Below, piece by piece: positions 2,788 to 43,746 of a stretch of DNA of 64,000 bases. Below the pieces are notes generated by a model. The model was not told the DNA's origin and did not search any database. It worked only from the letters and a program-made list of their open reading frames with translations. Position numbers and translations under genes: made by a program. Numbering within the stretch: position 1 is the first letter of the stretch; every line of letters starts with the position of its first letter. Origin of the DNA: Yersinia vastinensis (GTDB lineage Bacteria > Pseudomonadota > Gammaproteobacteria > Enterobacterales > Enterobacteriaceae); NCBI RefSeq assembly GCF_902726565.1, contig NZ_CACVAF010000010.1, positions 1-64,000 of the forward strand, written 5' to 3'.

Positions 2788-4121
2788 CAGGCCAGCTTCA
2801 GGTCACGAGTCATGTTCTCAACTCGATTATCATGGATAACGATATTATCTTCTATGCGAATGCCACCATAAGGCTTCAGCGCTTCAATGCGCTCCCAATT
2901 GAAGTGCTTACTGAATTCCCCGGTACGCCAAGGAGCCAATAACGATTCAATAAAGTAGAGGCCAGGTTCAATAGTGAGAACCATCCGTGGTTGCAGAATT
3001 CGAGTGCAACGCAGATAAGGGTATTTTGATGGAGCTGCCAAGTGAGTACCGGTATCATCCTGCATAAAGCCAGCGGTATCATGCACTTGAAGCCCTAGAG
3101 GATGGCCCAGCCCGTGAGGCAAGAACGGACAGGTAATCCCTTTCTCAACCATGGCATCTTCACTGATACCTGTGACTAAATTATGGGAATGAAGCAACTT
3201 GGCAATGCGCTGGTGCATCTGAACGTGATAATCGGTATAGCGCACACCGCTTTTAATGGTTTTGATCAGTGCCAATTGTTCATCATTCATATCTTTGATC
3301 AATGCGGCAAAATCGCTGTCACTGTCAGCGGCATAAGTGCGAGTCAGGTCAGCAGCATAACCATTATATTCGGCACCGGCATCCATCAAGAAACTACGCA
3401 TTTCTGCCGGTGGCTGATGCTGTAAGGTAGTGTAATGAAGCACAGCAGAGTGTTCATTCAGCGCCACGATATTATCGTAAGGCACATCAGTATCACGATG
3501 CCCCGTTGCCATCAGATAGGCAAGATTGATATCAAACTCGCTCATTCCTGATTGGAATGCCTCATAAGCAGCCCGATGTCCGGTGACCGCCATCTTTTGT
3601 GCTTCGCGCATGCACGCCAGCTCATAGTCCGTTTTATAAGAACGATAGAAATGAAGGTAATCCAGCACCGGCTGCGGATTAATATTTTCCGCACTGAAAC
3701 CTAGAGCCTGAGCACGGTGTTGCGCATATCCAATATAGGCCACGCGATCCCGCTGCACAGGTAATTGCTGCGCAATATCATCCGCGTTAGCTAGCGGCTG
3801 CATATCAATTGATTTTGTCCAGAAGCTATCTGGTAGTGGCTCTACACTGTGCCAATAGTCTACCGGGGAGTAAAACCATAACTTCGGCGTATTAACCCCA
3901 TCAACCCATAACCAGCAGTTTGGGACTTGAGTCACCGGCACCCAAGCTTTGAACTGGGCATTAACTTTAAAAGGATAGTCACGGTCATCAAGGAAAATAC
4001 GTTGTAATTCGCCGGAGTGAATCAGTAAAGCATCTAGCTGATGACGCTCCAGCACGTCGCGAGTGCGCTGTTGTAGGGTGGATAAATGTTCGTTATATAA
4101 AGAAGCCAGCGTTTCCATCAC
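2787..4121 (-). CDS. pepQ: Xaa-Pro dipeptidase PepQ
   Basis: PepQ is a cytoplasmic prolidase that hydrolyses Xaa-Pro dipeptides with a dinuclear metal centre. The 444-residue protein matches the E. coli length. The pita-bread metallopeptidase fold is indicated by the ligand segments [18 protein letters not shown] (about 246-263), [14 protein letters not shown] (His ligand), LTIEPGLYF (Glu) and IRIEDNIVI (Glu). It is the first gene of the pepQ-yigZ-trkH-hemG run and is divergent from fadB. Confidence 0.96.
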
Positions 4122-4366
4122 AGTACCCTTTGCTATTAGAACTTAATTTTTTCATCTTATCATAGTCGCCAAAGCCATGTTTTGATGACAACTTATCTGC
4201 CTGAAAAATACATTACGTCACTCGATAAATTGATTATTTAACCGCCCAAACGTCACGAATAAATATGATAAAAATCAATTACCCTTTCTGATTGACTGTG
4301 ATCTTCACTGCAAAAAATCAATCTCTTGTTTGCAATTCATTAACAAAATATCCACACTTCCTGAAT

Positions 4367-4383
4367 ATCTGGTCATACCAGAT
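4367..4383 (+). promoter_or_regulatory. FadR operator of fadBA
   Basis: The 17-bp element ATCTGGTCATACCAGAT is a perfect dyad (ATCTGGT, CAT, ACCAGAT) lying 26 bp before the fadB ATG. It differs from the E. coli fadB FadR operator as I recall it only in the three central bases. FadR represses beta-oxidation genes until long-chain acyl-CoA binds it. A good Shine-Dalgarno (CAGGAGATAGAT) separates it from the start codon. I could not place -35 and -10 boxes with confidence. Confidence 0.88.
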
Positions 4384-4409
4384 CACATGCGCTTATTCAG
4401 GAGATAGAT

Positions 4410-7774
<3,365 letters not shown>

Positions 7775-7903: not shown

Positions 7904-8605
7904 TCAGATAAAGGCAAAAGCATCACCATAGATGTGTGCTTCCTGCGCACCACGTTCAGTACAAAAACGCTCACGGGCAATTTTAGCCATTTCAAAACGG
8001 CCAGCAATATAGATATCCTGCTCAGCGAGAGAGCCGTAATCTTGCAACACCGCGCTCAGTACCGTTCCGGTACGGCCACGCCAACCCTCTTCTGGTTGCT
8101 CGACCACTGGAATAACTTTTAGCTGAGGATACTTAATCGACAGCGCTTCTAGCTCGCTTAAGTCATATAAATGCACAGCTTCGCGTCCACCCCAATAGAT
8201 GGAGACTTCACGATCAGGCCGCTCTGCCAGTGCCGCTAACAAAATTGAGCGCACATAGGAGAAACCTGTGCCACCGGCAATCAACACCAACGGACGATCA
8301 CTGCCCTCGCGGAACCACGCCTCGCCATGAGGGATGTCCACATCCAGCGTTTTCTCTTTCAGAATTCGGTCCATCACCGCCATAGCATAGAGATTGATTT
8401 CCGAAGCTCCGATATGCAGCTCGATGAAATCTTTCTGCAACGGTGTGGATGCCATAGAGAATGGGCGCTTATCCCGCTCATCCATTACTACCATCAAATA
8501 CTGCCCAGCACGGAAAGAAAATGCAGATGCAGGCACCAATTGCACCCGGTACACCGTATCGGTAATGGCCTCTACGGAGGTTACTTTACAGCTTAAAGTT
8601 GTCAT
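7904..8605 (-). CDS. fre: NAD(P)H-flavin reductase Fre
   Basis: Fre reduces free riboflavin, FMN or FAD with NAD(P)H; in the UbiD/UbiX context reduced flavin is used for prenyl-FMN synthesis. I use the ATG at 8605 ([20 protein letters not shown]), giving 233 residues as in E. coli, with a strong GAGGGAAGG Shine-Dalgarno before it. Flavin-binding RPFSMAS lies near residue 46-52, and the nucleotide-binding [10 protein letters not shown] near 111-120. The gene follows ubiD by 54 bp, the same pair as in E. coli. Confidence 0.96.
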
Positions 8606-8659
8606 GCCTTCCCTCTGTCGGGTCATCAAATGCAAAACTAAGGACAAGATCAACGCCGG

Positions 8660-10156
8660 TTAGCGTGTCGTCTCTTTGTCACTGAAAATGGCGAGTTCAT
8701 CCCAAATAGCATCAACGCGGGCGCGGACTTCTTCATCCATTTTAATTGGACGCCCCCATTCACGCGGAGTCTCTGCTGGCCATTTATTGGTGGCATCCAG
8801 CCCCATTTTCGATCCCAAACCGGAAACCGGTGAGGCGAAATCCAAATAATCTATTGGTGTATTTTCAATTAATACCGTATCGCGGGAGGGGTCCATTCGG
8901 GTCGTAATGGCCCAAATAACATCATTCCAATCACGTGCATTAATATCATCATCACAAACAATAACAAATTTTGTATACATAAACTGGCGCAAAAACGACC
9001 AAACACCCATCATCACGCGTTTAGCATGGCCTGCATACTGTTTCTTGATTGTCACCACGGCCAGACGGTATGAACACCCTTCTGGTGGCAGATAGAAATC
9101 GACAATTTCTGGGAACTGCTTTTGCAAAATAGGGACAAATACTTCATTCAGCGCAACCCCCATCACCGCGGGCTCATCCGGTGGGCGACCAGTATAAGTT
9201 GAATGATAAATCGCGTCTTGGCGCTGAGTGATATGTGTGACAGTGAAGACAGGGAAACTATCAATTTCGTTGTAATAGCCGGTATGGTCACCATAAGGGC
9301 CTTCCGGGGCCATCTCACCCTGCTCAATATACCCTTCCAACACAATTTCCGCACTGGCAGGCACTTCAAGGTCATTGGAAAGGCACTTCACGACTTCCGT
9401 TTTATACCCACGCAACAAACCGGCAAAGGCATATTCAGACAACGTATCGGGCACAGGGGTTACCGCAGCCAAAATAGTTGCAGGATCAGCGCCCAGAGCC
9501 ACCGCCACCGGGAAACGCTCGCCAGGATGCGCCTCGCACCACTCTTGGTAGTCCAGAGCCCCACCACGATGGGATAACCAACGCATAATTAACTTGTTCT
9601 TGCCCAGCACTTGTTGGCGATAGATACCCAAATTCTGACGCTCTTTATGTGGCCCACGAGTTACCGTCAGCCCCCAAGAAACCAAGGGTGCGGCATCTTC
9701 TGGCCAACAGTGCATGACCGGAATTCGACTCAGATCGACATCATCTCCCTCCCAGACCTGCTCCTGACACGGGGCAGAGCTTAAGCGCTTGGTTGGCATA
9801 TTCAACACTTGCTTAAACTTTGGCAGTTTATCGAATAAATCACGAAACCCTTTCGGAGGATCGGGTTCTTTTAAGAAAGCCAATAGCTTGCCAACATCGC
9901 GTAGTGCGCTGACATCTTCTTGCCCCATTCCCATGGCAACCCGCTTGGCTGTACCAAACAGATTACACAGCACTGGCATAGTGTGGCCCTTAGGATTTTC
10001 AAACAGTAATGCAGGACCACCGGCACGCAGGGTGCGATCGGCAATTTCTGTCATTTCCAAATAGGGGTCGATAGGCTGGCTAATACGTTTAAGTTCACCC
10101 CTCTGTTCCAGCAACGAGAGGAAGTCACGTAGGTCACGGTATTTCATGCTGATCAT
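8660..10156 (-). CDS. ubiD: 3-octaprenyl-4-hydroxybenzoate decarboxylase UbiD
   Basis: UbiD decarboxylates octaprenyl-4-hydroxybenzoate in aerobic ubiquinone synthesis using prenylated FMN made by UbiX. The start at 10156 ([20 protein letters not shown]) gives 498 residues, near the E. coli 497; an ATG at 10147 is also possible. Family stretches include [31 protein letters not shown] and the C-terminal [19 protein letters not shown]. It is divergent from rfaH and probably cotranscribed with fre. Confidence 0.97.
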
Positions 10157-27764: not shown

Positions 27765-28718
27765 ATGATCGAACTGAAACACTTACGCACCCTGCAAGCT
27801 TTGCGTAATACCGGCTCACTGGCTGCGGCGGCGACACAACTCCATCAGACCCAATCGGCCTTGTCCCATCAATTCAGCGATCTGGAGCAGCGTCTGGGTT
27901 TTCGCCTATTTGTGCGTAAAAGCCAGCCATTACGTTTCACCACACAAGGTGAAATCCTGTTGCAGTTAGCAGAACAAGTTTTGCCGCAAATTAAACAAGC
28001 CCTGCAAACGTGCAATGAACCTCATCAAACGGCTCTGCGGATCGCCATTGAATGCCATAGCTGCATTCAATGGCTGACACCGGCGCTAGATAGCTTTCAC
28101 AAAAACTGGCCGCAAGTGGCGATGGACTTTCAATCAGGCGTGACTTTTGATCCACAACCCGCGTTGCAGCAAGGGGAATTGGACTTGGTACTGACATCGG
28201 ATATTTTGCCGCGCAGTGGTCTACACTATTCGCCAATGTTCGACTTTGAGGTGCGCTTGGTGCTGGCACCGGACCATCCGTTAGCCAATAAAGCCCGCAT
28301 TGAGCCAGAAGATTTGGCACAAGAAGTGCTGATGATTTATCCGGTGCAACGTCAACGATTAGATGTCTGGCGGCATTTCCTGCAACCGGCAGGGATTAAC
28401 CCTCAACTGAAAAATGTCGATAACACGTTACTGCTCATTCAAATGGTCTCTGCACGGATGGGGATCGCCGCTCTGCCACACTGGGTGGTGGAGAGTTTCG
28501 AACGTCAGGGATTGGTGGTCACAAAAACGCTGGGAAATGGTTTATGGAGCCGGTTATACGCTGCCGTCCGTGATGGGGAGCAGCGCCAACCGGTCACTGA
28601 GGCTTTTATTCGTTCGGCTCGACAGCACGCTTGCGATCATCTGCCGTTTGTAAAGAATGCGGAGCGACCCAACGCCGGTGTACCCATAGCGAGGCCATTA
28701 TCACAATTGCCCCAATGA
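27765..28718 (+). CDS. metR: LysR-family regulator of methionine genes MetR
   Basis: MetR is a homocysteine-responsive LysR-type activator of metE and other methionine genes. The 317-residue protein, the E. coli length, starts [17 protein letters not shown], with the winged helix-turn-helix in [19 protein letters not shown] (about 19-37) and a periplasmic-binding-like effector domain from about 90. It is divergent from metE. Its last 113 bp overlap the end of yigM on the other strand, yet both proteins keep family C-termini. Confidence 0.97.
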
Positions 28719-29505
28719 TAAAGCTGGGCCAATGGGGCTTTTCTTGCCAAATAGCCAAGTTCACCAGTAACCCAGCCGGAACATGCACGTTATTCATGAT
28801 ACCCAAGGTGCCGGCATCCACTTGTGTCGCACCATAGTTCCACATGAAATAACCTAGAGCGGAAGCTCCGACGCCGAGCCAAACCAGCACGCCCCACTGT
28901 AACGATGTGGTCGGTAGTTTTTGTGGATTACCAAAGGCAAACCAAGCCACGACTGCGACAACCAACGCACCGATATAAAACCATGAAAATGCCACATGCT
29001 GCGCAATTGGGTGAACTTCCATTAGACGTTTGTAACCCACTTGTCCAATGGCAAAACAGATATTCGCCGCCTGCACCAGCATCAATCCCCACCAGAAGTG
29101 TTCACTCAGATGGTCATAACGGATGATAGCCGCCCCCACGACTGCCAACAGCGCACTGAGAGCATAACCCCAGCGCAAGCGCTGGCGACGTAACAAATCA
29201 TAGATTAACGTGACATAGAGTGGGGTCATCACCGTGAACAGCAAAAATTCCGGCACCGTCAGATACAGATACGCGCGGAAACTGAACAAATACATGATAC
29301 CTAACTGAATAGCACCCACAGTCATATACAGCAGGATCACTCGCCCACTTATATTGCGCCAACGTAAGAAAGGTAAGAAGACCAGCGCGGCTAGCCCGAC
29401 ACGCATCAGCACAGAGAACCAGCTATCCACATGCCCTGCCAGATATTCGCCAATCAGGCTAAAAGAGAACGCCCATAAGATGGTGGTAATGACCAGTAAA
29501 AACAC
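28606..29505 (-). CDS. yigM: Biotin transporter YigM/BioP (EamA family)
   Basis: This 299-residue EamA/DMT-family protein has ten predicted membrane helices and matches E. coli YigM, the high-affinity biotin transporter, along its length. Shared stretches include [55 protein letters not shown] and [16 protein letters not shown]. The C-terminal [14 protein letters not shown] tail is encoded opposite the 3' end of metR. Its position next to metR is the E. coli one. Confidence 0.92.
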
Positions 29506-34489: not shown

Positions 34490-35809
34490 TTATTTATTTG
34501 CTTGTTCGAAACGACGTAGCAACACATCGCCCCGCTTCACTGATGCATCCAACGCTTCCTGAGGCGTTTTCTTACCCGTCCATACCCCTTCCAACTCTTC
34601 ATCTACCACGGTACGAATCTGCGGCATATTGCCCAGACGCAATCCTTTGGTATAAGGCAAAGGTGGCTTGTTCAGCATTTGACGTGTCGCGACATCTGCA
34701 CCCGGATTCTTATCATAGAAACCTTGCTGCTTGGTTAGCTCATAAGCCGCTGTCGTGATTGGCAGATAACCGGTTTTTTGGTGCCATTCCGCTGCAATTT
34801 CTGGTTGGGCCAGATATTGCAGGAATTCTGCCACACCCTTGTAGGTGTCTTTATCTTTACCATCCATCACCCACAGGCTAGCACCACCAATAATGGCGTT
34901 TTGTGGGGCATTTTTAGCATCAGCGTCATAAGGCATCATGCCGACGCCATAATTGAACTTGGCGTAATGGCGGATATCGGCCAGTGAACCGGAAGAGGCG
35001 GTGGTAATAGCACAATCACCATTATAGAACTTGGCGGTTGATTCATCTTTGCGACCAAAATAGGTGAAGTCACCTTTCTTGTTCATATCTGACAACAACT
35101 GAATATGCTTAACTTGCAATGGCTTATTGAATTCCAGTACAGCATCGGTGCCATCAAACCCATTATTGCGGCTAGCAATGGGTTGGCCATGCCAAGCACT
35201 GAAATTCTCAATTTGGATCCAACCTTGCCAACCACTGGCATAACCACAAGTTGAACCCGCCGCACGTAATTTGGCGGTATCCGCCGCCAGTTCCTGCCAG
35301 GTTTTCGGCGGTTGATCTGGGTTCAATCCTGCTTTTTTGAAAGCATCTTTGTTGTAATACAGCACAGGAGTGGAGCTATTAAAGGGCTGAGATAATAAGT
35401 GGCCCGTTTTGGCATCGGTGTAATAACCCGCGACCGTTGGCACAAAAACGGACTCATCAAAATTGATATTAGCGTCTTTAAAAACCTGAAATACTGGCTT
35501 GATGGCTTTACTGGCCATCATTGTCGCCGTACCAACTTCATAAACCTGCAAAATGGCCGGAGCCTTCCCTGAGCGGAAAGCCGCGATACCCGCTGCCAGA
35601 CTTTGTTCGTAGTTACCTTTATAGACGGGAACAATTTTATAATCGGTATGTGACTGATTAAAACGATCTGCTAATGAATCGACCTCTTTACCTAACTCCC
35701 CCTCCATTGAATGCCAGAATGGGATTTCGGTGACAGCCATTGCATTAGCACTGAATGCCAAGGTAAGTGCGATACAAATCGACGTTTTACGAATAATATT
35801 GTTAAACAT
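34490..35809 (-). CDS. ugpB: sn-Glycerol-3-phosphate periplasmic binding protein UgpB
   Basis: UgpB captures glycerol-3-phosphate and glycerophosphodiesters in the periplasm for UgpAEC. The 439-residue protein has a Sec signal peptide ([20 protein letters not shown] to ANAMA, cleaved before [10 protein letters not shown]) and the family 1 solute-binding fold, with [19 protein letters not shown] early and [20 protein letters not shown] near the C-terminus. It is the first gene of ugpBAECQ and is preceded by Pho boxes. Confidence 0.97.
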
Positions 35810-35949: not shown

Positions 35950-36317
35950 AGAATCAAAATAAAATCAGTCGTTAATATCATTACTGATAACGAATTAAAT
36001 TAGTATTTCGTCTAAATTGTTTGACAGACAAAATAAGCATTATTCAACGAAGCAATAAAAGCTTAAACATCAATTAGGAACTTATTCCGCCATTTAATTT
36101 AAATTAATTTTCTTTCCTTAAATTGGTTGTATCATTATTGAACCACCTCTATCAGGCATGTTACTGTTTTCTCGCCTTGTGGATGACACTATATTAATAC
36201 GATTATATTAATGCCCTCGTTATCGTCGTCAAATATAAACCACAAGGACCACCCAGAAGAATCCCCCCTATTCATTACTGAATGGGACTTTATGCAAAGG
36301 ACGATTAGGTATCTACA
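35950..36317. other. AT-rich region between ugp and the fimbrial operon
   Basis: No gene is visible. The stretch is strikingly rich in A and T compared with the flanking ugp genes. It holds a TATATTAAT direct repeat (36190-36198 and 36204-36212) and must contain the fimbrial promoter, which I could not place. No regulator gene of the Rns/CfaD type is present. Silencing by H-NS is plausible from composition only. Confidence 0.5.
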
Positions 36318-36824
36318 ATGAAAAAGACTCTATTATCTACTATGGCTATAGCTGCATTAATTGGTAGCACGACTGTTTATGCACAACCTCTAGAAAAAAA
36401 CATTCAAGTTGAAGCCGAGGTTCACTCTATAGTCAGCATGAATAAAGCAGATGGCTCCCCACTCGATAAGATTAAGCTTAACTATGATGCAGCTAAGAAT
36501 GACGGTACCTATACCTACAGTGAGAATATCGAAATAAAAGCAACTAATACCGATAAAGTCAAAGTCCGTCTCTCTGATGTATTTATATTGAAGAATGGGA
36601 AGAATAAATTCTTTGACCATGTAATAACTCTCGGTGAGGAAGAAATATATTCAGGTTCAGTGGACGGGACGCGACAGTATTTCCTAGGCAAAGGTACTTC
36701 TTTTGATTTAAGTAATGGCAATGCAACTATTCTTCCATTGGTAATAAGTGCCAAGCAACCTAAAAACTCTGCGGTGGGCATATACTCTGGCGTAGCCAAG
36801 CTTGTTATTGAAGAAGACATTTAA
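36318..36824 (+). CDS. CS1/CFA-I-type fimbrial major subunit (pilin 1)
   Basis: The 168-residue protein has a Sec signal peptide (MKKTLLSTMAIAALIGSTTV to YAQ). The mature start LEKNIQVEAEVHSIVSMNKA and the following DGSPLDKIKLNYDA align with the CS1 family pilins CooA/CfaB (VEKTISVTASVDPTVDLLQS as I recall), and the C-terminal strand YSGVAKLVIEEDI matches their YQGLVSIILTKS end. There are no cysteines in the mature part, as in that family. It is first in the operon and followed by a stable hairpin, which suggests it is the main shaft subunit. Confidence 0.85.
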   Translation: MKKTLLSTMAIAALIGSTTVYAQPLEKNIQVEAEVHSIVSMNKADGSPLDKIKLNYDAAKNDGTYTYSENIEIKATNTDKVKVRLSDVFILKNGKNKFFDHVITLGEEEIYSGSVDGTRQYFLGKGTSFDLSNGNATILPLVISAKQPKNSAVGIYSGVAKLVIEEDI

Positions 36825-36882
36825 TTAAAAAATAAAATATCCTTTTAATTGTACTAAGCCAAAATCAGTTACAGTTGGTTTA

Positions 36883-36911
36883 TTGGTGCTAACCACCTAA
36901 GTTAGCACCAA
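36883..36911 (+). other. Intercistronic hairpin after pilin 1
   Basis: TTGGTGCTAAC (36883-36893) and GTTAGCACCAA (36901-36911) form a perfect 11-bp stem with a seven-base loop. The following AATACAAG has no uridine run. It lies 59 bp after the pilin 1 stop and 65 bp before pilin 2. A hairpin here commonly protects major-pilin mRNA and lowers downstream expression; that role is inferred. Confidence 0.6.
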
Positions 36912-36975
36912 TACAAGTTAATGCCAGTTATAAAATACATCAATAAAGATTTCGATCAGACAAGGAGTGTCAGTA

Positions 36976-37497
36976 ATGAAGAAAATACTATTATCAGTAA
37001 TGACCATAGCAATATTAAGTACAAGTACAGTCACACACTCGCTACCGCTAGATAAATATATTGACGTCTTCGCAGAAATACCTTCCAGAATCGAAATAAT
37101 ACAAGCTAATGGGAGGGATTTAGAGTCTCTTCACTTAGAAAGGGGGGATGATGGTGTTCATTCTCTTAGTGAAAGTGTTCTGATATCAGTTAGCGGTGGT
37201 ACCGGCGTTAATATCAAGCTCGGTTCTCCGCTGAACCTAGTGAAGGAGCCCAGATATACTAACGAAAATAATATAGGGTCTCCTGTAATTCGGGATATAG
37301 GGCCTTCAAAGAGATTTATTGAACATCATGTGACCATCGCAGAGAAGGAATTAGGTACTCTTGATTATATTCAGCTGAAAGCAGCCGATATTGACACCGC
37401 TATCCCTCTAGTTATTACGGCGAAAGAACCAGCTAATGTAAGAGGAGGCGAAGTCTATGTTGGAAAACTTCACCTTGTTTTAGAGGACGCAGTGTAA
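36976..37497 (+). CDS. CS1/CFA-I-type fimbrial subunit (pilin 2)
   Basis: A second pilin-like protein of 173 residues, paralogous to pilin 1: signal peptide MKKILLSVMTIAILSTSTVT to SHS, mature LPLDKYIDVFAEIPSRIEII, and C-terminal VYVGKLHLVLEDAV. The ATG at 36976 has AAGGAG eight bases before it, so I prefer it to the GTG at 36967. It diverges strongly from pilin 1 in the middle. It could be a minor shaft subunit or an alternative major subunit. Confidence 0.78.
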   Translation: MKKILLSVMTIAILSTSTVTHSLPLDKYIDVFAEIPSRIEIIQANGRDLESLHLERGDDGVHSLSESVLISVSGGTGVNIKLGSPLNLVKEPRYTNENNIGSPVIRDIGPSKRFIEHHVTIAEKELGTLDYIQLKAADIDTAIPLVITAKEPANVRGGEVYVGKLHLVLEDAV

Positions 37498-37542
37498 CTT
37501 TATTCTATCAGTAAATATAGAGAATATCTTTTATATATTATA

Positions 37543-37568
37543 CAGCCAAGAGCTTAGGACCTTGGCTG
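37543..37568 (+). other. Intercistronic hairpin after pilin 2
   Basis: CAGCCAAG (37543-37550) and CTTGGCTG (37561-37568) pair perfectly over eight bases with a ten-base loop. CAACGCC follows, so there is no terminator tail. It lies between pilin 2 and the usher and could reduce usher expression relative to the subunits. Confidence 0.45.
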
Positions 37569-37687
37569 CAACGCCTTTGACACTAATATATAAAGCAATA
37601 GCTTAATAATATTACTCATGGAATGAAAATATATTTATCAGAGGCGTCTATTTTTTAATTATATAACCAATGATGGAATGGAATCCA

Positions 37688-39991
37688 ATGACAAAGGTCA
37701 AAGCAGTCAATCAGATAATTATGTTAAGTTTATTTTTTTCCACATCTGGTTCCATCTGTGCAGAAGAAAGCATTACCATTGAGCATCTAGTACCAACTGG
37801 ATTTTCATCTATTGAAGAACATAAATCACTGCAACTACTGGGTATATTAGATGGCAAAACATTACCTGCCCCGATTTTTTTCTCCGAAGAAAAACAGCAA
37901 CTAAGCTTCGATCATCAGCAATACCGAAATAACCATGTTGATGAACAGTCAATTTTTTTATTAGAAAAAATCTTATCGCAGATACCTTATTTACAATGCC
38001 AAAATGGCTGTGACTATATTCTATCAGACCATCGCGTCATGTTAGATAAAATAAATCAAGTAGTCACTATCACGAATAATAACAACCAATACCTAATGCC
38101 AGTAACGACTTGGGGACTGGTACATAACCAATCTTTTGATCTGCGCATGACCGCAAAAAACTACAGTGCGATGTCTGCTCGTGGGCAAGGCTATCTAGGG
38201 CTACCACTACAATCCTATGGTTTTGTACAATGGTTTTATAATACCACTCGCTCAAAAAATAATTATCAACTTGCAAATCAATCGCAATATCAAAATAATA
38301 ATCAGGCCGGAATCGGTAGCTGGTATTTACAAAAAAACTTTCAGGCACTCTATTTACGAGCTGGCAAGCAAGATAATCTGGATAATAATGCTGGCAGCAT
38401 TCATACCTTGATAAATCCAGCATTAGACCAATTTATTACCTTAGGGAGTCAGAGCTATTTGGCCCTTGATAAACCCTCAGCAGGCAGTCTTGTGTTATAT
38501 GCCACTGCCGATGGTGATTATGAAATCTATCGTGATAATCAACTTATTCGTCGTATTCCAGCACAACTTGGCCGTAATGAAATTGATTATAACCAACTCC
38601 CCGGTGGCTATTACAACATTGATATTCGATTAGTCGATCACACCGGCCGTGTCATCAGCCAGGAAAGTCAAACCATCAGCAATATTGGTACTCAAACCAA
38701 TAATGGTTGGTTCTTGACGATGGGAAAAGGAGCATCACAAAACAAAAATCGCACTCATCATCTGGCGCAATTTGGCCGCAGTATGTCAATAAAAAGCGCA
38801 CAGGCTAATTTCACATTGCTAACTGATGATTCCCGTCATTGGGCTGTTGAAGGGAATATAGCGCACCCATTAGATTTCCTCAGCCTTAATATCACTCCTG
38901 TATTGGGCATGATGTCTGGGGAAAAACGTAGTGGGGGTTATCTGCGCTTAAATGGCGGAAATTCTGCTGTGGGGTATTTCGCGGTGGCGCGTTATCAAGT
39001 ACCGAATGTATCAATATATGCCCCTAATACCGGCAGCACATCAGCGTCTTATAGCCGTCGGTTAGGTTCAACTCAACTCAGTTATCAATTCAATCAATAT
39101 AAAAATAATCAGCAACACCGTATTCAAAGCAGTTGGGGCTGGCGACAACCACAATTTGGCCTGAACCTATCCCTTGGAGTGCAGAAAGGTGGGCAATGGC
39201 ATAGCCAGAATAACTACGGGGTATTTATGAATACCACACTCTCTTTCCGCCAAAGTAGCGCCAGCATCAACAGTGCCTATGTTCGCCGGCAGTTAAGTAC
39301 CAGCGCTAATTACCAAAAAGAGTTCACCGATAACCATGGTACTAGCTCTTTGGGCATTAGTGGCAGTACCAGTGGAAAAAACAATGGGATCGGCGCTTTT
39401 GCGCAACGTAGCGGCAGTCGTGGTGATATTTCTGCCCGTGCGGGTCTTGATAACAAGATAGCTAACGGGGGTGTCAGCTATAGCGGCATGTTAGCTGTCA
39501 GCCCTCAAGGTTTAGCATTAGGCCGCAGCAGTTATAGCGGTTCAGCATTACTAATCAAAACACCGGAATTAGCAGGTACACCTTATAGCTTCCATGCGGA
39601 AGGCAATCCGATCACGGGGGGAGGAGTCTACGCCATTCCTGTTCCGCGCTATCAAGACCGCTTCTTTGTTCGTACACATAATGATCGCAGTGATCTGGAT
39701 ATGAATATCCAATTACCGGTCAATATTGTCCGTGCACATCCTGGCCAAGTCTTTATGAGTAAAGCGGATATCACGCTCGATATGCTTTATAGCGGTTTTC
39801 TTAAAGACCCACAGGGGAAACCGGTTAGTGGGGTGATTGAGGAAACCGGCGATGCTATCCACCCGAATGGATTATTTGCCATTAACTCTAACGTCATGCT
39901 GAAAAATATTACGGTCCAAAATGGTTCGGTCCGTTATCACTGCGATATGCGCCAACAGCGTGACCATATTTACCTTTGCCACTCTAATTAA
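37688..39991 (+). CDS. Outer membrane usher, CS1/CFA-I (CooC/CfaC/TcfC) type
   Basis: The usher forms the outer-membrane pore through which chaperone-bound subunits are assembled. I chose the ATG at 37688 (MTKVKAVNQIIMLSLFFSTS, 767 residues), which gives a clean signal peptide ending at CAEE and has GGA five bases away; ATGs at 37670 and 37673 lack a ribosome site. The N-terminal domain has a Cys pair in LQCQNGCDYI. A plug-like region occurs near 255-340 (LVLYATADGDYEIYRDNQL, NEIDYNQLPGGYYNIDIRLV), then beta-barrel repeats rich in Ser, Asn and Tyr, and a C-terminal domain with Cys pair (VRYHCDMRQ and YLCHSN). As I recall, CooC/CfaC are about 870 residues, so this one is short. Confidence 0.85.
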   Translation: MTKVKAVNQIIMLSLFFSTSGSICAEESITIEHLVPTGFSSIEEHKSLQLLGILDGKTLPAPIFFSEEKQQLSFDHQQYRNNHVDEQSIFLLEKILSQIPYLQCQNGCDYILSDHRVMLDKINQVVTITNNNNQYLMPVTTWGLVHNQSFDLRMTAKNYSAMSARGQGYLGLPLQSYGFVQWFYNTTRSKNNYQLANQSQYQNNNQAGIGSWYLQKNFQALYLRAGKQDNLDNNAGSIHTLINPALDQFITLGSQSYLALDKPSAGSLVLYATADGDYEIYRDNQLIRRIPAQLGRNEIDYNQLPGGYYNIDIRLVDHTGRVISQESQTISNIGTQTNNGWFLTMGKGASQNKNRTHHLAQFGRSMSIKSAQANFTLLTDDSRHWAVEGNIAHPLDFLSLNITPVLGMMSGEKRSGGYLRLNGGNSAVGYFAVARYQVPNVSIYAPNTGSTSASYSRRLGSTQLSYQFNQYKNNQQHRIQSSWGWRQPQFGLNLSLGVQKGGQWHSQNNYGVFMNTTLSFRQSSASINSAYVRRQLSTSANYQKEFTDNHGTSSLGISGSTSGKNNGIGAFAQRSGSRGDISARAGLDNKIANGGVSYSGMLAVSPQGLALGRSSYSGSALLIKTPELAGTPYSFHAEGNPITGGGVYAIPVPRYQDRFFVRTHNDRSDLDMNIQLPVNIVRAHPGQVFMSKADITLDMLYSGFLKDPQGKPVSGVIEETGDAIHPNGLFAINSNVMLKNITVQNGSVRYHCDMRQQRDHIYLCHSN

Positions 39992-40007
39992 TACTGACGG
40001 AAACACG

Positions 40008-40688
40008 ATGAAATATAAAAAATTACTACCAATTATTGCTTTATTCCTAGCCCCTATCACTACAGCTTATGGGCAATTAATGGCGATCCCTACTCGCACG
40101 ACAGTAGAAGCTATGAATCAACACCGGACAGTACAGGTCTACAATAGTGGTGATAAGCCGCTTTATTTAAATATCTCTTTGCAACGGGTAGAAAATCCGG
40201 GAATGAATCCGGAGAAGAAAACACCGATTAGTGATATTAGTCAACCTGAGATGATCTTTAATCCAGGCCGAATTACGTTAGGGCCGAAGCAAAAGCGGGA
40301 TATAAAATTACTCCCACTAAAGTCTCCGGAGCAGGAGACTTTATACCGTCTATATATTGACCCAGTCGTTGATATCAAGGCAGTAGGTGATGGGGATAAA
40401 AGTAAAATCCATGCGCCTATGACCATCAGTATTGGCTATGGTGTTCTTATCCACCATATCCCACCCGCAGCTGCGCAGACCCACCAGTGGCAACATCAAT
40501 GCACACCTGACGGCCTGATGCTCAGTTCCACAGGCAGTGTTCACAGCAAATTTGTACAGCTCAAATCACCCGATAACGCCACATTGGCAGATAGCCTAAA
40601 TTTATACCGAGGTGCACCCGTCACTTTATCAGTCAAACAACTCAGCGGGCAGGCTGATAATGAAACCTTTACTCTTCGTTGTAGCTAG
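40008..40688 (+). CDS. Periplasmic fimbrial chaperone 1 (CS1/CFA-I type)
   Basis: This 226-residue chaperone starts at the ATG at 40008 (MKYKKLLPIIALFLAPITTA, signal cleaved near YGQ) with GGAAACACG before it. The first Ig-like domain has QVYNSGDKPLYLNISLQRVE, NPGRITLGPKQKRDIKLLPL and ETLYRLYIDPVV, which resemble CfaA/CooB. A cysteine pair in the second domain (WQHQC and TLRCS) probably forms a disulphide. It begins 16 bp after the usher and overlaps chaperone 2 by 29 bp. Confidence 0.83.
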   Translation: MKYKKLLPIIALFLAPITTAYGQLMAIPTRTTVEAMNQHRTVQVYNSGDKPLYLNISLQRVENPGMNPEKKTPISDISQPEMIFNPGRITLGPKQKRDIKLLPLKSPEQETLYRLYIDPVVDIKAVGDGDKSKIHAPMTISIGYGVLIHHIPPAAAQTHQWQHQCTPDGLMLSSTGSVHSKFVQLKSPDNATLADSLNLYRGAPVTLSVKQLSGQADNETFTLRCS

Positions 40689-41310
40689 TTTGCTGCCGCT
40701 CAGTGCTATCGCGACAATAGACATTCAACCACATGTGCTGGAAATGCAACAAGCCAACGCAGTGGTCAACGTTATCAATCACAGTTCAATGACGGAGTAC
40801 ATCAGGGTTCAGCTATATCAGATTAATAACCCAGGTGTTCCACCGGATCAGGAATCATTAATTTCTGTTGGTGAGCAGTCACAACCATCCTTGTTTGCTA
40901 TGCCATCTAAACTGACTCTCGGTCCAAATCAGAGCGGGAGAATATTACTTAAGGCACTGCAATCGCCTGATAAAGAACAGGTATATCGGTTATCAGTCGT
41001 ACCCGAAAAGAACTTGCGAGTTAGTGGTGGTCAAGGTGCTGTCGTGGGCGTTCAACTAAGTTATATGGGATTGGTCAGGCATCTACCCGATTCTCCACAC
41101 CACTTATGGACGCATCACTGTATCGACGGGAAGCTGAAATTACAAAATACCGGTAATACTCGCCTGCATTGGCACCAGTTGAAGACCCCACAGGGAGAAA
41201 GAATCGATGATTTTAATCTCTACCCAGAACAGCAGCGACAACTAACCGTCAGCAATCTACAGGGAATGGTTGAAGATAAATTATTCAACTTGCAGTGTTC
41301 TACTGATTAA
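40660..41310 (+). CDS. Periplasmic fimbrial chaperone 2 (CS1/CFA-I type)
   Basis: A second chaperone of 216 residues, paralogous to chaperone 1: signal MKPLLFVVASLLPLSAIA, mature TIDIQPHVLEMQQANAVVNV, then VQLYQINNPGVPPDQ, SKLTLGPNQSGRILLKAL and EQVYRLSVVPEK. It also has a cysteine pair (WTHHC and NLQCSTD). The ATG at 40660 lies inside the end of chaperone 1 in another frame, implying translational coupling. The most likely roles are service to a different subunit set or formation of a heterodimer with chaperone 1; neither is shown by sequence. Confidence 0.8.
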   Translation: MKPLLFVVASLLPLSAIATIDIQPHVLEMQQANAVVNVINHSSMTEYIRVQLYQINNPGVPPDQESLISVGEQSQPSLFAMPSKLTLGPNQSGRILLKALQSPDKEQVYRLSVVPEKNLRVSGGQGAVVGVQLSYMGLVRHLPDSPHHLWTHHCIDGKLKLQNTGNTRLHWHQLKTPQGERIDDFNLYPEQQRQLTVSNLQGMVEDKLFNLQCSTD

Positions 41311-41325
41311 AAATTAAGGAGCGTT

Positions 41326-41850
41326 ATGAATATGATAAAAATAGCGGCCATATCATTATTCTTTCCATGGCTGGCCATTTCTGCTGGTATTCCAGTTCCC
41401 CTTGGGGATATTGACGTCCAGCTAGAGGTAACTGCACTGCCCAGAATTGAGGTCGAAAAACCGCAAGGTGGATGGTATGACAATATAAAGCTGAATAATA
41501 GCCTAGAAGATCATGAAGTTTATCAATCTGAGTTTCCAATAACAATCAAGCTACGCCAACAAACTGGGTTCCGAATTTCAGTTAAAAATCCGCTGATACT
41601 CACTCGCCAATCGAATAATGCTGCCGTGCAGGAATTAGCATTTTCCCCCGCACAAGTATATTGGGGCAAAGAACGTACCCTGTTGCAGCCATTATCGGCT
41701 ACTCCGGAAATTTTTACTGTAGATGAAGGCACATCCAGTTTAACCAGTACTGACTATATATTGCGCATTTCAGCGCTGGCGCCCAATCACCCAAATAGTG
41801 CAGGGAAGTATCACGGGCAGCTAACATTAATCTTTGAAACAAATAGCTGA
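41326..41850 (+). CDS. Pilin-like fimbrial subunit (pilin 3)
   Basis: The 174-residue protein has a signal peptide (MNMIKIAAISLFFPWLAISA) and a mature N-terminus GIPVPLGDIDVQLEVTALPR that follows the CS1 pilin pattern of an alternating hydrophobic strand. It ends YHGQLTLIFETNS, like the C-terminal strand of pilin 1 (YSGVAKLVIE). It is the most divergent of the three subunits. Its place beside the tip adhesin suggests a minor or adaptor subunit. AAGGAG precedes the ATG. Confidence 0.72.
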   Translation: MNMIKIAAISLFFPWLAISAGIPVPLGDIDVQLEVTALPRIEVEKPQGGWYDNIKLNNSLEDHEVYQSEFPITIKLRQQTGFRISVKNPLILTRQSNNAAVQELAFSPAQVYWGKERTLLQPLSATPEIFTVDEGTSSLTSTDYILRISALAPNHPNSAGKYHGQLTLIFETNS

Positions 41851-41870
41851 CAGTCATGGAGAGACACTAA

Positions 41871-42983
41871 GTGAACGTTAAATATAAAACAGTATTAATG
41901 GGATTAATGCTATTAATATTGCAACCCACAGCTATAGCTAGCCCTTATTTTTACGATGGAATAGTCGAAAGATATTCCGACTGCTCATTGCAGCTATTAG
42001 ACGATAACAGTGTAAAGGTTTCTTTTAATGTCAATATGGTGAGTAAACTGTTTGGCCTAGAATCTCGCCATCGGGTTGCGTTGGCAAAATTAATAAATAT
42101 TCCTAATGAAGAGGTAAAAAATGTTTCATTGCATTCACGTAAGGCCCTTCTTTCTCTCTACTTCTACAATGCCGATGGTTCACCCAATTTAAATATCAAT
42201 ATTAATCACCTTCATAACATTGTACTCAACAGTGCTCGATTTGATAATTCCAGTGATAATATTAGAGAAATTAAATTTTATAATCCTTGGGAATTTAGTA
42301 ATGAGCATAGTAGCTATAACGTGTCATTCACAGTTAAAGCTAATACTCTAAAATATATCCGAATCGGTGCAACTGTTGGAGGTGAACTGGTTACAGGTGG
42401 AGTGGATAAGCCCAAATACCCGCTACTTTCATCAAAAGGCGTTTCTTTTGGCCCTTTAGGTAATCAATGTCTACCGTTTGATCCTCAACAGAATGCCGCG
42501 CCACAGGCGCTAAAAGTCGATCCCAAATTCCGTTTAGCTTCGACTGTATGGCAACTACAATCTATCGATCTGGATCACTTACTTGATAACACGACTGATA
42601 CTAACGGTTTATATGTTCCATTGAAAAATGGAACTGCTAATCGTTTTTGTATCAGTTATCGAGCCATGGGTGTACAAAGCACTCGTTATATGATTAGCGC
42701 CAGCAATCTAAATGGATTATCAAATAGTAACCAGCACTTTCAATTAAAAGAAAAAAATGGGAAAAGTTTTATTAATTATGGAGTAAGGCTCAAAAATGAT
42801 GACAATACCCAAACAAGTTTCACATTACCAAAACATAAAAAATTTATTCAGTTAAAAACGAATGAATATACCGGTGAAGAACAAATGTGTTGGTCACCTA
42901 AAATACGCCTATACCGTACGGACACTACCGATAAAGGCAGCTACAGCGACACACTGAGTTTTACTATCACCCCAGAAGCATAA
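41871..42983 (+). CDS. Fimbrial tip adhesin-like subunit (CooD/CfaE type)
   Basis: The 370-residue protein is in the size range of CfaE/CooD (about 360), the minor tip subunits of CS1-family fimbriae that bind host receptors and start assembly. The start is GTG at 41871 with GGAGAGACACTAA before it. A signal peptide (MNVKYKTVLMGLMLLILQPT to AIAS) is present. Cysteines occur in YSDCSLQLL, GNQCLPFDP, NRFCISYRA and QMCWSPKIR, suggesting two disulphides. The last strand, YSDTLSFTITPEA, fits a pilin-type domain. The receptor cannot be told from the sequence. Confidence 0.78.
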   Translation: MNVKYKTVLMGLMLLILQPTAIASPYFYDGIVERYSDCSLQLLDDNSVKVSFNVNMVSKLFGLESRHRVALAKLINIPNEEVKNVSLHSRKALLSLYFYNADGSPNLNININHLHNIVLNSARFDNSSDNIREIKFYNPWEFSNEHSSYNVSFTVKANTLKYIRIGATVGGELVTGGVDKPKYPLLSSKGVSFGPLGNQCLPFDPQQNAAPQALKVDPKFRLASTVWQLQSIDLDHLLDNTTDTNGLYVPLKNGTANRFCISYRAMGVQSTRYMISASNLNGLSNSNQHFQLKEKNGKSFINYGVRLKNDDNTQTSFTLPKHKKFIQLKTNEYTGEEQMCWSPKIRLYRTDTTDKGSYSDTLSFTITPEA

Positions 42984-42999
42984 AACTATTAAATAATAA

Positions 43000-43021
43000 A
43001 ATAAGGCCCGCAAGCGGGCCT
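43000..43021 (-). terminator. Rho-independent terminator of livF
   Basis: AGGCCCGC (43004-43011) and GCGGGCCT (43014-43021) form an eight-base-pair stem with a two-base loop. On the minus strand it is followed by TATTTTATTATTT, so it ends the liv operon. On the plus strand the tail is AAAAAAATAT, so it is weaker for the fimbrial operon, although it is the only hairpin there. Confidence 0.75.
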
Positions 43022-43044: not shown

Positions 43045-43746
43045 TTAACCGCCTAAATAAGCCGAACGCACAGCCTCATTTGCAAGCAGGGCTGCCCCCG
43101 TGTCCTCAAGAACAATACGGCCATTCTCCAGTACATAACCACGATCAGCCAGTTTCAGCGCCTGATTAGCATTCTGTTCAACTAAGAAGATGGTCATGCC
43201 CTCTTCCCTTAGCTGTTGAATAGTATCAAATATTTGCAAAATAATAATGGGTGCCAGCCCCAATGACGGCTCATCTAGCAGCAATAATTTAGGCTGACTC
43301 ATCAATGCACGACCTATCGCCAGCATTTGTTGCTCACCCCCAGACATGGTGCCAGCCCGTTGAGCGCGCCGTTCAAATAGTCTTGGGAACAAATCGTAAA
43401 CCCGCTCAATACGCTGCTGATATTGTTGACGATCAGCAAAAAAACCGCCCATTGCCAGGTTTTCTTCAACAGTCATACGAGAGAACACACGGCGCCCTTC
43501 AGGCACAATCGCAATCGCCTCACGCATAATGCGCGCAGTCTGCCAGTTTGTAATATCTTGCTCACCGAAAACAATACTGCCCTCGGTCGCTCGAGGTTCG
43601 CCGCACAGTGTCCCCAACAGCGTGGTTTTACCCGCCCCATTGGCACCAATCAGGGTCACAATTTCACCTTGTTGAATATGCAGACTAACCTGATGCAGTG
43701 CCTGAATCTTGCCGTAATGGGCGGAAACTTTATTAAATGACAACAT
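43045..43746 (-). CDS. livF: Branched-chain amino acid ABC transporter ATP-binding protein LivF
   Basis: LivF is one of two ATPases of the high-affinity leucine, isoleucine and valine importer. At 233 residues it shows Walker A GANGAGKTTLLG (about 34-45), signature SGGEQQMLAIGRALM, Walker B LLLLDEPSLGLAP and the switch histidine region replaced by LVEQNANQAL, all typical. It follows livG by 25 bp and is the last gene of livKHMGF; the fimbrial operon replaces its E. coli neighbour ugpB on the other side. Confidence 0.97.
   Translation of the reverse strand: MLSFNKVSAHYGKIQALHQVSLHIQQGEIVTLIGANGAGKTTLLGTLCGEPRATEGSIVFGEQDITNWQTARIMREAIAIVPEGRRVFSRMTVEENLAMGGFFADRQQYQQRIERVYDLFPRLFERRAQRAGTMSGGEQQMLAIGRALMSQPKLLLLDEPSLGLAPIIILQIFDTIQQLREEGMTIFLVEQNANQALKLADRGYVLENGRIVLEDTGAALLANEAVRSAYLGG

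What the first reader, a model, noticed from the sequence alone, without database searches (positions are those of the whole stretch)
36318..42983. CS1/CFA-I-type fimbrial operon placed exactly in the conserved livF-ugpB junction
Established gene order in E. coli is livKHMGF followed directly by ugpBAECQ. Here both operons keep that order and orientation, but about 7.2 kb lie between the last liv gene and the first ugp gene, filled by seven AT-rich plus-strand fimbrial genes. No transposase, tRNA or direct repeat marks the ends. Alternate chaperone-usher (alpha) fimbriae of this type are known adhesins in enterotoxigenic E. coli and others. I do not know this locus by name.
Basis: partly seen in the sequence, partly recalled or inferred. 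Interest (0 to 1): 0.72.

Follow-up and report, generated by a model that had tools for sequence, protein, structure and literature searches.

The report
Ancestral Yersinia fimbrial operon, swapped alleles
A set of genes for hair-like attachment fibres sits at the same chromosomal spot in every Yersinia species examined; it was not recently inserted here, but species appear to trade different versions of it between well-conserved neighbouring genes.

Summary
Seven plus-strand genes (36318-42983, GC 0.409 against 0.48 in the flanks) fill a 7,235-bp gap between ugpB and livF. They encode an alternate (alpha, CS1/CFA-I-type) chaperone-usher pilus: two major pilins, usher, two CfaA-like chaperones, a minor pilin and a two-domain tip protein.

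Recent insertion is not supported. The usher lies in the same interval and orientation in 25 of 25 Yersinia species genomes, and a Regiella-like genome has the operon beside the orthologue of a gene that lies just beyond ugp in the window. Outside Yersinia the usher was found in 6 of 157 family genomes, none seen at a livF-ugpB junction.

Transfer is supported at another level: against core genes and flanks, the operon shows at least three interspecies allele replacements, a 5' block in G011 and whole operons in G024 and in the G004/G007/G019 lineage. Pilin and tip diverge fastest; pilin copies number 1-4.

By numbering, Y. pestis YPO3798-YPO3801 lies in this interval; its deletion mutant did poorly in a published pooled rat screen.

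The parts
36318..36824 (+). major pilin 1 (CS1/CfaB type, signal peptide, N-terminal donor strand)
   Evidence: PF04449 E 8.3e-15; profile A4 matches CfaB and CS17 structures, N-terminal strand included
36967..37497 (+). major pilin 2 (likely start ATG 36976); 34% identical to pilin 1
   Evidence: PF04449 E 3.3e-6; 34% in A4; pairs with the last pilin of G011 (SH-aLRT 99)
37670..39991 (+). outer-membrane usher, 773 aa, alpha type
   Evidence: TcfC domain E 1.5e-14; CooC_C E 0.0036, below its cut-off, in the window protein; CooC_C in 16 of 17 members of A1 at E<=0.1
40008..40688 (+). periplasmic chaperone 1 (ORF opens at 39921)
   Evidence: NCBIfam TcfA model E 2.1e-11, under its curated cut-off; the joint chaperone profile A5 matches CfaA
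40660..41310 (+). periplasmic chaperone 2 (ORF opens at 40612)
   Evidence: NCBIfam TcfA model E 5.6e-12, under its curated cut-off; A5 matches CfaA entries 4y2o (E 9.4e-23) and 6k73 (E 1.5e-22) and pili chaperone 4ncd (E 5.8e-26)
41326..41850 (+). minor pilin, diverged CS1 type
   Evidence: no Pfam hit alone; 3 of 22 members of A3 touch PF04449 at E<=0.1; profile A3 matches CfaB 3f85 at E 1.4e-9
41871..42983 (+). two-domain tip protein (N-terminal domain about 26-205, pilin domain about 217-369)
36120..36317 (+). leader/promoter region of the operon, conserved across species
   Evidence: DNA alignment of 11 species, mean column identity 68%, 43 invariant positions, start codon included
43004..43021 (-). 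G+C-rich stem followed by a T-rich stretch on the - strand, a possible terminator of liv between the two operons
   Evidence: terminator-like hit; the scan found 5 sites against 5.4 expected in shuffles, so weak
34490..35809 (-). ugpB, conserved left flank
   Evidence: one match at E<=1e-80 in each of 25 Yersinia genomes
43045..43746 (-). livF, conserved right flank
   Evidence: one match at E<=1e-80 in each of 25 Yersinia genomes

Best explanation
This is a resident alpha (alternate, CS1/CFA-I-type) chaperone-usher pilus locus of Yersinia that entered the ugpB-livF neighbourhood before the genus radiated. Inferred working: subunits go to the periplasm by their signal peptides, two CfaA-like chaperones hold them, and the usher polymerises them by donor-strand exchange into a fibre with the CS1-type pilins as shaft, the minor pilin as an adaptor or end subunit, and the 370-aa protein as tip adhesin. 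Since the assembly genes and flanks are conserved while pilins and tip diverge fast, homologous recombination in flanks or assembly genes can swap whole or partial alleles between species, giving new surface variants at a constant site. Shown here: family, position, distribution, divergence gradient and conflicts between trees. Inferred: expression, assembly, the recombination route, and that the tip binds a surface.
For: Families. Tip structure. Same interval and orientation in 25 of 25 species. Regiella-like genome: the gene beside the operon has one match in the window genome, at 28657-29502, one gene beyond ugpQ. Yersinia, Regiella-like and Fukatsuia ushers form one clade, 100/100. Mean pairwise aa identity among ingroup species: livF .98, ugpB .96, usher .75, chap1 .74, chap2 .68, minor .61, tip .53, best-matching pilin .40 (Y. 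aldovae left out for usher and ugpB, Y. pekkanenii for the chaperones). Pilin signal peptide .53 against mature part .30 over 33 pilins. Allele swaps: in G011 the leader, usher and chap1 (about 36150-40670) are nearest the window species, and from there on it is nearest its sister G006 (pilin windows not comparable because copy numbers differ); usher AU p 1.7e-5 against G006+G011, 3' genes AU p 1.1e-68 against G000+G011; core AU p 9e-5 against G000+G011. G024 flanks 92-97% to G020 but operon 59-80%, usher AU p 1.8e-56 against G024+G013+G020. G004/G007/G019.
Against: No expression or fibre data for this strain. The livF+ugpB flank tree also moves one species (Y. aldovae) and rejects the core 8-species clade (AU p 9e-4), so the flanks are not perfectly clonal. 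Yersinia monophyly of the usher is marginally rejected (AU p 0.039), the ruckeri group being drawn to the long symbiont branches. No per-gene dN/dS exceeded 1 in the four close pairs, so selection for diversity is not proved. One genome per species was seen, so each swap rests on one assembly (three for G004/G007/G019).
Confidence: 0.86

Rival explanations
1. Recent horizontal insertion of the operon into this genome.
For: Low GC and patchy presence outside Yersinia: 6 of 157 non-Yersinia family genomes, none seen at this junction.
Against: Present at the same place in 25 of 25 Yersinia species; in core and usher trees the window species falls near Y. alsatica and Y. frederiksenii.
Confidence: 0.03
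2. The operon is older still, ancestral to the family, and was lost from the junction in most other genera.
For: Serratia sp. Ag1 has the same gene order, and its usher with that of Edaphovirga is sister to the Yersinia clade.
Against: None of the six other carriers of the draw was seen with it at livF-ugpB: G071 and G101 carry livF on other contigs; G073, G083, G092 and G170 gave no livF or ugpB match at the thresholds used, so their site cannot be judged that way. The usual interval elsewhere is short or holds an aminotransferase-like gene.
Confidence: 0.12
3. The tree conflicts reflect fast, uneven evolution and long branches instead of recombination.
For: Fast genes and some long branches.
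Against: Identity of G011 switches sharply inside the operon. G024 against G020 falls from 94% to 63% at the left edge and rises from 66% to 96% at the right edge, while G020-G013 keep 81-93% inside the operon.
Confidence: 0.07
4. The locus is a decaying, silent relic.
For: Interrupted usher in Y. aldovae and reduced or split copies in the symbionts.
Against: Usher open in 24 of 25 genomes; dN/dS 0.10-0.16 for the usher in four pairs; the Y. pestis block YPO3798-3801 was in a screen of loci up-regulated in the rat bubo.
Confidence: 0.05

Closest known systems
CFA/I and CS1 (class 5) fimbriae of enterotoxigenic E. coli
   Same: CfaB-type pilins with the N-terminal strand, CfaA-type chaperones, TcfC/CooC-type usher, tip with an overall arrangement like CfaE
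   Different: Chromosomal and genus-wide, two chaperones, an extra minor pilin, 1-4 major pilins; no sequence match of the tip to CfaE or any other solved structure. One chaperone, one major pilin and plasmid location in ETEC are recalled.
Alpha-fimbria cluster of Hamiltonella defensa, compared with Y. pestis CO92 in PMC5322557
   Same: Major subunit, minor subunit, two chaperones and usher, said to be identified as the alpha-fimbria genes of Y. pestis CO92 (passages read)
   Different: The usher is inactive in the aphid strain; location at liv-ugp is not stated in the passages seen; sequence not compared here
Y. pestis YPO3798-YPO3801 (PMC3968184)
   Same: By numbering it lies between ugp (ugpC YPO3793) and livF (YPO3804); category attachment/colonization
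   Different: Sequence not compared here; four genes deleted as a block; other species
Tcf of Salmonella and cable pili of Burkholderia
   Same: TcfB and CblA pilin models, the TcfA chaperone model and the Pfam TcfC usher domain match
   Different: The NCBIfam TcfA, TcfB and CblA matches are far below the curated cut-offs (20.9-45.7 bits against 225-500), so not the same pilus

Membership tests
alpha / class 5 (alternate) chaperone-usher fimbriae | CS1-type major pilin with N-terminal donor strand | tested here: met
   PF04449 above cut-off for both pilins; CfaB and CS17 structures matched including the N-terminal strand
alpha / class 5 (alternate) chaperone-usher fimbriae | alternate (FGA, CfaA-type) chaperone | tested here: met
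   joint profile of both chaperones matches CfaA entries 4y2o and 6k73 at E 9.4e-23 and 1.5e-22 and 4ncd at 5.8e-26; the FGA loop features were not checked residue by residue
alpha / class 5 (alternate) chaperone-usher fimbriae | alpha-clade usher | tested here: met
   TcfC domain in 17 of 17 and CooC_C in 16 of 17 members of A1 at E<=0.1; no usher tree with reference clades was built
alpha / class 5 (alternate) chaperone-usher fimbriae | two-domain tip adhesin of the CfaE/CooD family | tested here: inconclusive
alpha / class 5 (alternate) chaperone-usher fimbriae | assembles a surface fibre that binds a receptor | not testable with these tools
   needs expression and microscopy
recent genomic island | absent from the site in sister species | tested here: not met
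   present in 25 of 25 species
recent genomic island | tRNA, integrase or flanking direct repeats | tested here: not met
   no tRNA in the window; no end-to-end repeat; no transposase recognised among the interval's ORFs

The most novel reading that the evidence does not exclude
The livF-ugpB interval works in Yersinia as an adhesin exchange site, much as the O-antigen locus does for surface sugar: a core position where species swap complete or half pilus alleles through conserved flanks or assembly genes, while pilins and tip co-diversify as a module separate from usher and chaperones.
Probability: 0.5. Interest if true: 0.5.

Novelty: new member of a known kind. Interest (0 to 1): 0.37.

Why it matters
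It corrects the story from an island inserted here to a genus-wide ancestral locus, ties an operon for which I found no name to a published Y. pestis mutant phenotype by position, and offers a natural series in which the assembly machine is fairly constant while shaft and tip vary. That makes the question of which fibre part sets binding testable across non-pathogenic Yersinia species.

Tried and rejected
Insertion marked by tRNA or repeats: none found. Sequence match of the tip to any solved structure, alone or as a profile: none; Pfam on 30 tips: nothing convincing. Usher profile against solved structures: none. Synteny in Fukatsuia: no window gene found upstream of the pilin in the stretch read. 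Promoter scan: 18 sites against 22.3 expected, uninformative. Positive selection by whole-gene dN/dS: no value above 1 in four pairs. Co-divergence of modules, on 20 of 22 ingroup species (Y. aldovae dropped because its usher and ugpB were left out, Y. pekkanenii because both chaperones lie in one 447-aa frame): usher-chap1 Mantel r 0.74 and usher-chap2 0.76 (0 of 5000 permutations as high), tip-pilin 0.55 (2 of 5000) and 0.53 (4 of 5000) after control for usher and ugpB, usher-tip 0.27 (195 of 5000), usher-pilin 0.16 (683 of 5000); suggestive, as shared ancestry is only partly controlled. The minor pilin structure job was sent but never collected. Not done: strain-level variation within species, and a genome-wide baseline of recombination. 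Prior-art searches were made, in an open-licence library only; Nuccio and Baumler 2007 is not held, so novelty of the allele swapping is not established.
Full report
Observation. Seven plus-strand ORFs occupy 36318-42983 between ugpB and livF, both on the minus strand. The gap is 7,235 bp and its GC is 0.403 against 0.484 and 0.478 in the flanks. There is no tRNA in the window and no repeat pair joining the ends. The operon DNA has one match in the window genome.

Distribution. In 25 of 25 Yersinia species genomes, the window's included, the usher lies between livF and ugpB on the opposite strand, the gap being 6.4-9.8 kb. In 159 family genomes, 2 of them Yersinia, the usher was found in 8 at E<=1e-20. 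Of the six others, two carry livF on contigs other than the usher's, and four gave no livF or ugpB match at the thresholds used. Of 65 non-Yersinia family genomes with both flanks on one contig and strand, 44 have at most 1,061 bp between, 10 have 1.5-2.6 kb, 10 have 5.5-19.7 kb, and in one the genes are far apart; the ten long intervals were read and hold other genes, not this operon.

Age. In a Regiella-like genome (G092; a named Regiella contig, L068, shows the same genes) the pilin starts about 270 bp from a gene whose only match in the window genome is at 28657-29502, on the far side of ugp (one further gene lies between it and ugpQ), in the same relative orientation. Loss of the genes between in the symbiont is the simple reading, which puts the operon at this place before the two lineages split. 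Its usher and that of Fukatsuia fall in one clade with Yersinia (100/100), with Serratia sp. Ag1 plus Edaphovirga as sister; Yersinia alone as a clade is marginally rejected (AU p 0.039). On the other side the Regiella-like operon ends after chap1 and is followed by genes that look like glyQ-glyS (names recalled). In Fukatsuia no such neighbour was found.

Divergence. Among ingroup species mean identity falls from .98 (livF) and .96 (ugpB) to .75 (usher).61 (minor).53 (tip) and .40 (best-matching pilin). Pilin copies number one in 20 of 25 genomes, two in 3, three in 1 and four in 1; the tip is duplicated in 2 of 25. dN/dS in four close pairs: ugpB .01-.04, usher .10-.16, tip .16-.48, pilin .22-.73. 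The leader region is well conserved in 11 species aligned.

Conflicts between trees. The ftsE-region core tree and the usher tree (24 genomes, Y. aldovae left out) agree on the Y. ruckeri group and on G014/G015, G008/G012, G003/G010, G009/G017 and G004/G007/G019 as groups. They disagree in three places. (1) G011: sister to G006 in core and flanks, but its usher groups with the window species; identity switches at about 40670, between chap1 and chap2; its last pilin pairs with the window's pilin 2 and its first is nearest pilin 1. (2) G024 (Y. thracica): flanks 92-97% identical to G020, operon 59-80%, while G020-G013 stay at 81-93% in the operon; the two pilin windows gave no value. (3) G004, G007 and G019 group with G008, G012 and G018 in the usher tree; core data reject that clade (p 5e-61) and usher data reject the core grouping (p 4.7e-5, or 2e-71 with G011 left out). 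Of 276 species pairs (Y. aldovae left out), ten have flank identity above 0.93: in five the usher is at 0.91-0.94, in five at 0.75-0.88. Against this, the flank tree itself moves Y. aldovae and rejects the core 8-species clade (p 9e-4).

Function. PMC3968184 (section 13 part 1 of 2 and other passages read) lists livKHMGF as YPO3808-3804 and a deletion of YPO3798-YPO3801, category attachment/colonization, with average relative competitive index 1.1+/-1 in lymph node and in spleen of rats; the authors call values up to 10 a high to moderate likelihood of attenuation, report a bottleneck, and deleted blocks of neighbouring genes around loci up-regulated in the rat bubo. PMC2631605 (passages) gives ugpC as YPO3793. 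So that block lies inside the interval; that it is this operon is inferred from numbering and not from sequence. The passages seen do not show an individual confirmation of that mutant. Binding target and regulation here are unknown; attachment is inferred from the family.

Noticed in passing
L106-L115 (livF-ugpB intervals of other genera): The same junction holds other 5-20 kb blocks in 10 of 65 family genomes; by eye they include what look like chemotaxis receptors, sugar-use operons and a VgrG/Rhs-like set, so it may be a general insertion hotspot.
   Followed up: partly
L103, L104, L105, L117 and L106-L112: A PLP-dependent aminotransferase-like gene (name recalled) of about 395-416 aa often sits next to livF in other genera and is not in the window's interval.
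   Followed up: partly
L072 (Y. aldovae), about 3281-5592: The usher is interrupted near its N-terminus and seen as two pieces.
   Followed up: partly
L102 and L143 (Fukatsuia): Usher pieces lie about 15 kb apart with unrelated, apparently mobile genes between them.
   Followed up: partly
L073 (Y. aleksiciae) and L087 (G016): Two different tip genes in tandem.
   Followed up: no
L089 (Y. pekkanenii) 4847-6190: Chaperones 1 and 2 appear in one 447-aa open frame.
   Followed up: no
L094 (Y. similis) 8082-8886: About 0.8 kb more than usual between tip and livF.
   Followed up: no
L053 11850-12458, L100 3827-4528: Serratia sp. Ag1 and Edaphovirga have regulator-like genes (by eye) just after the tip; none is seen in the window operon.
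   Followed up: no
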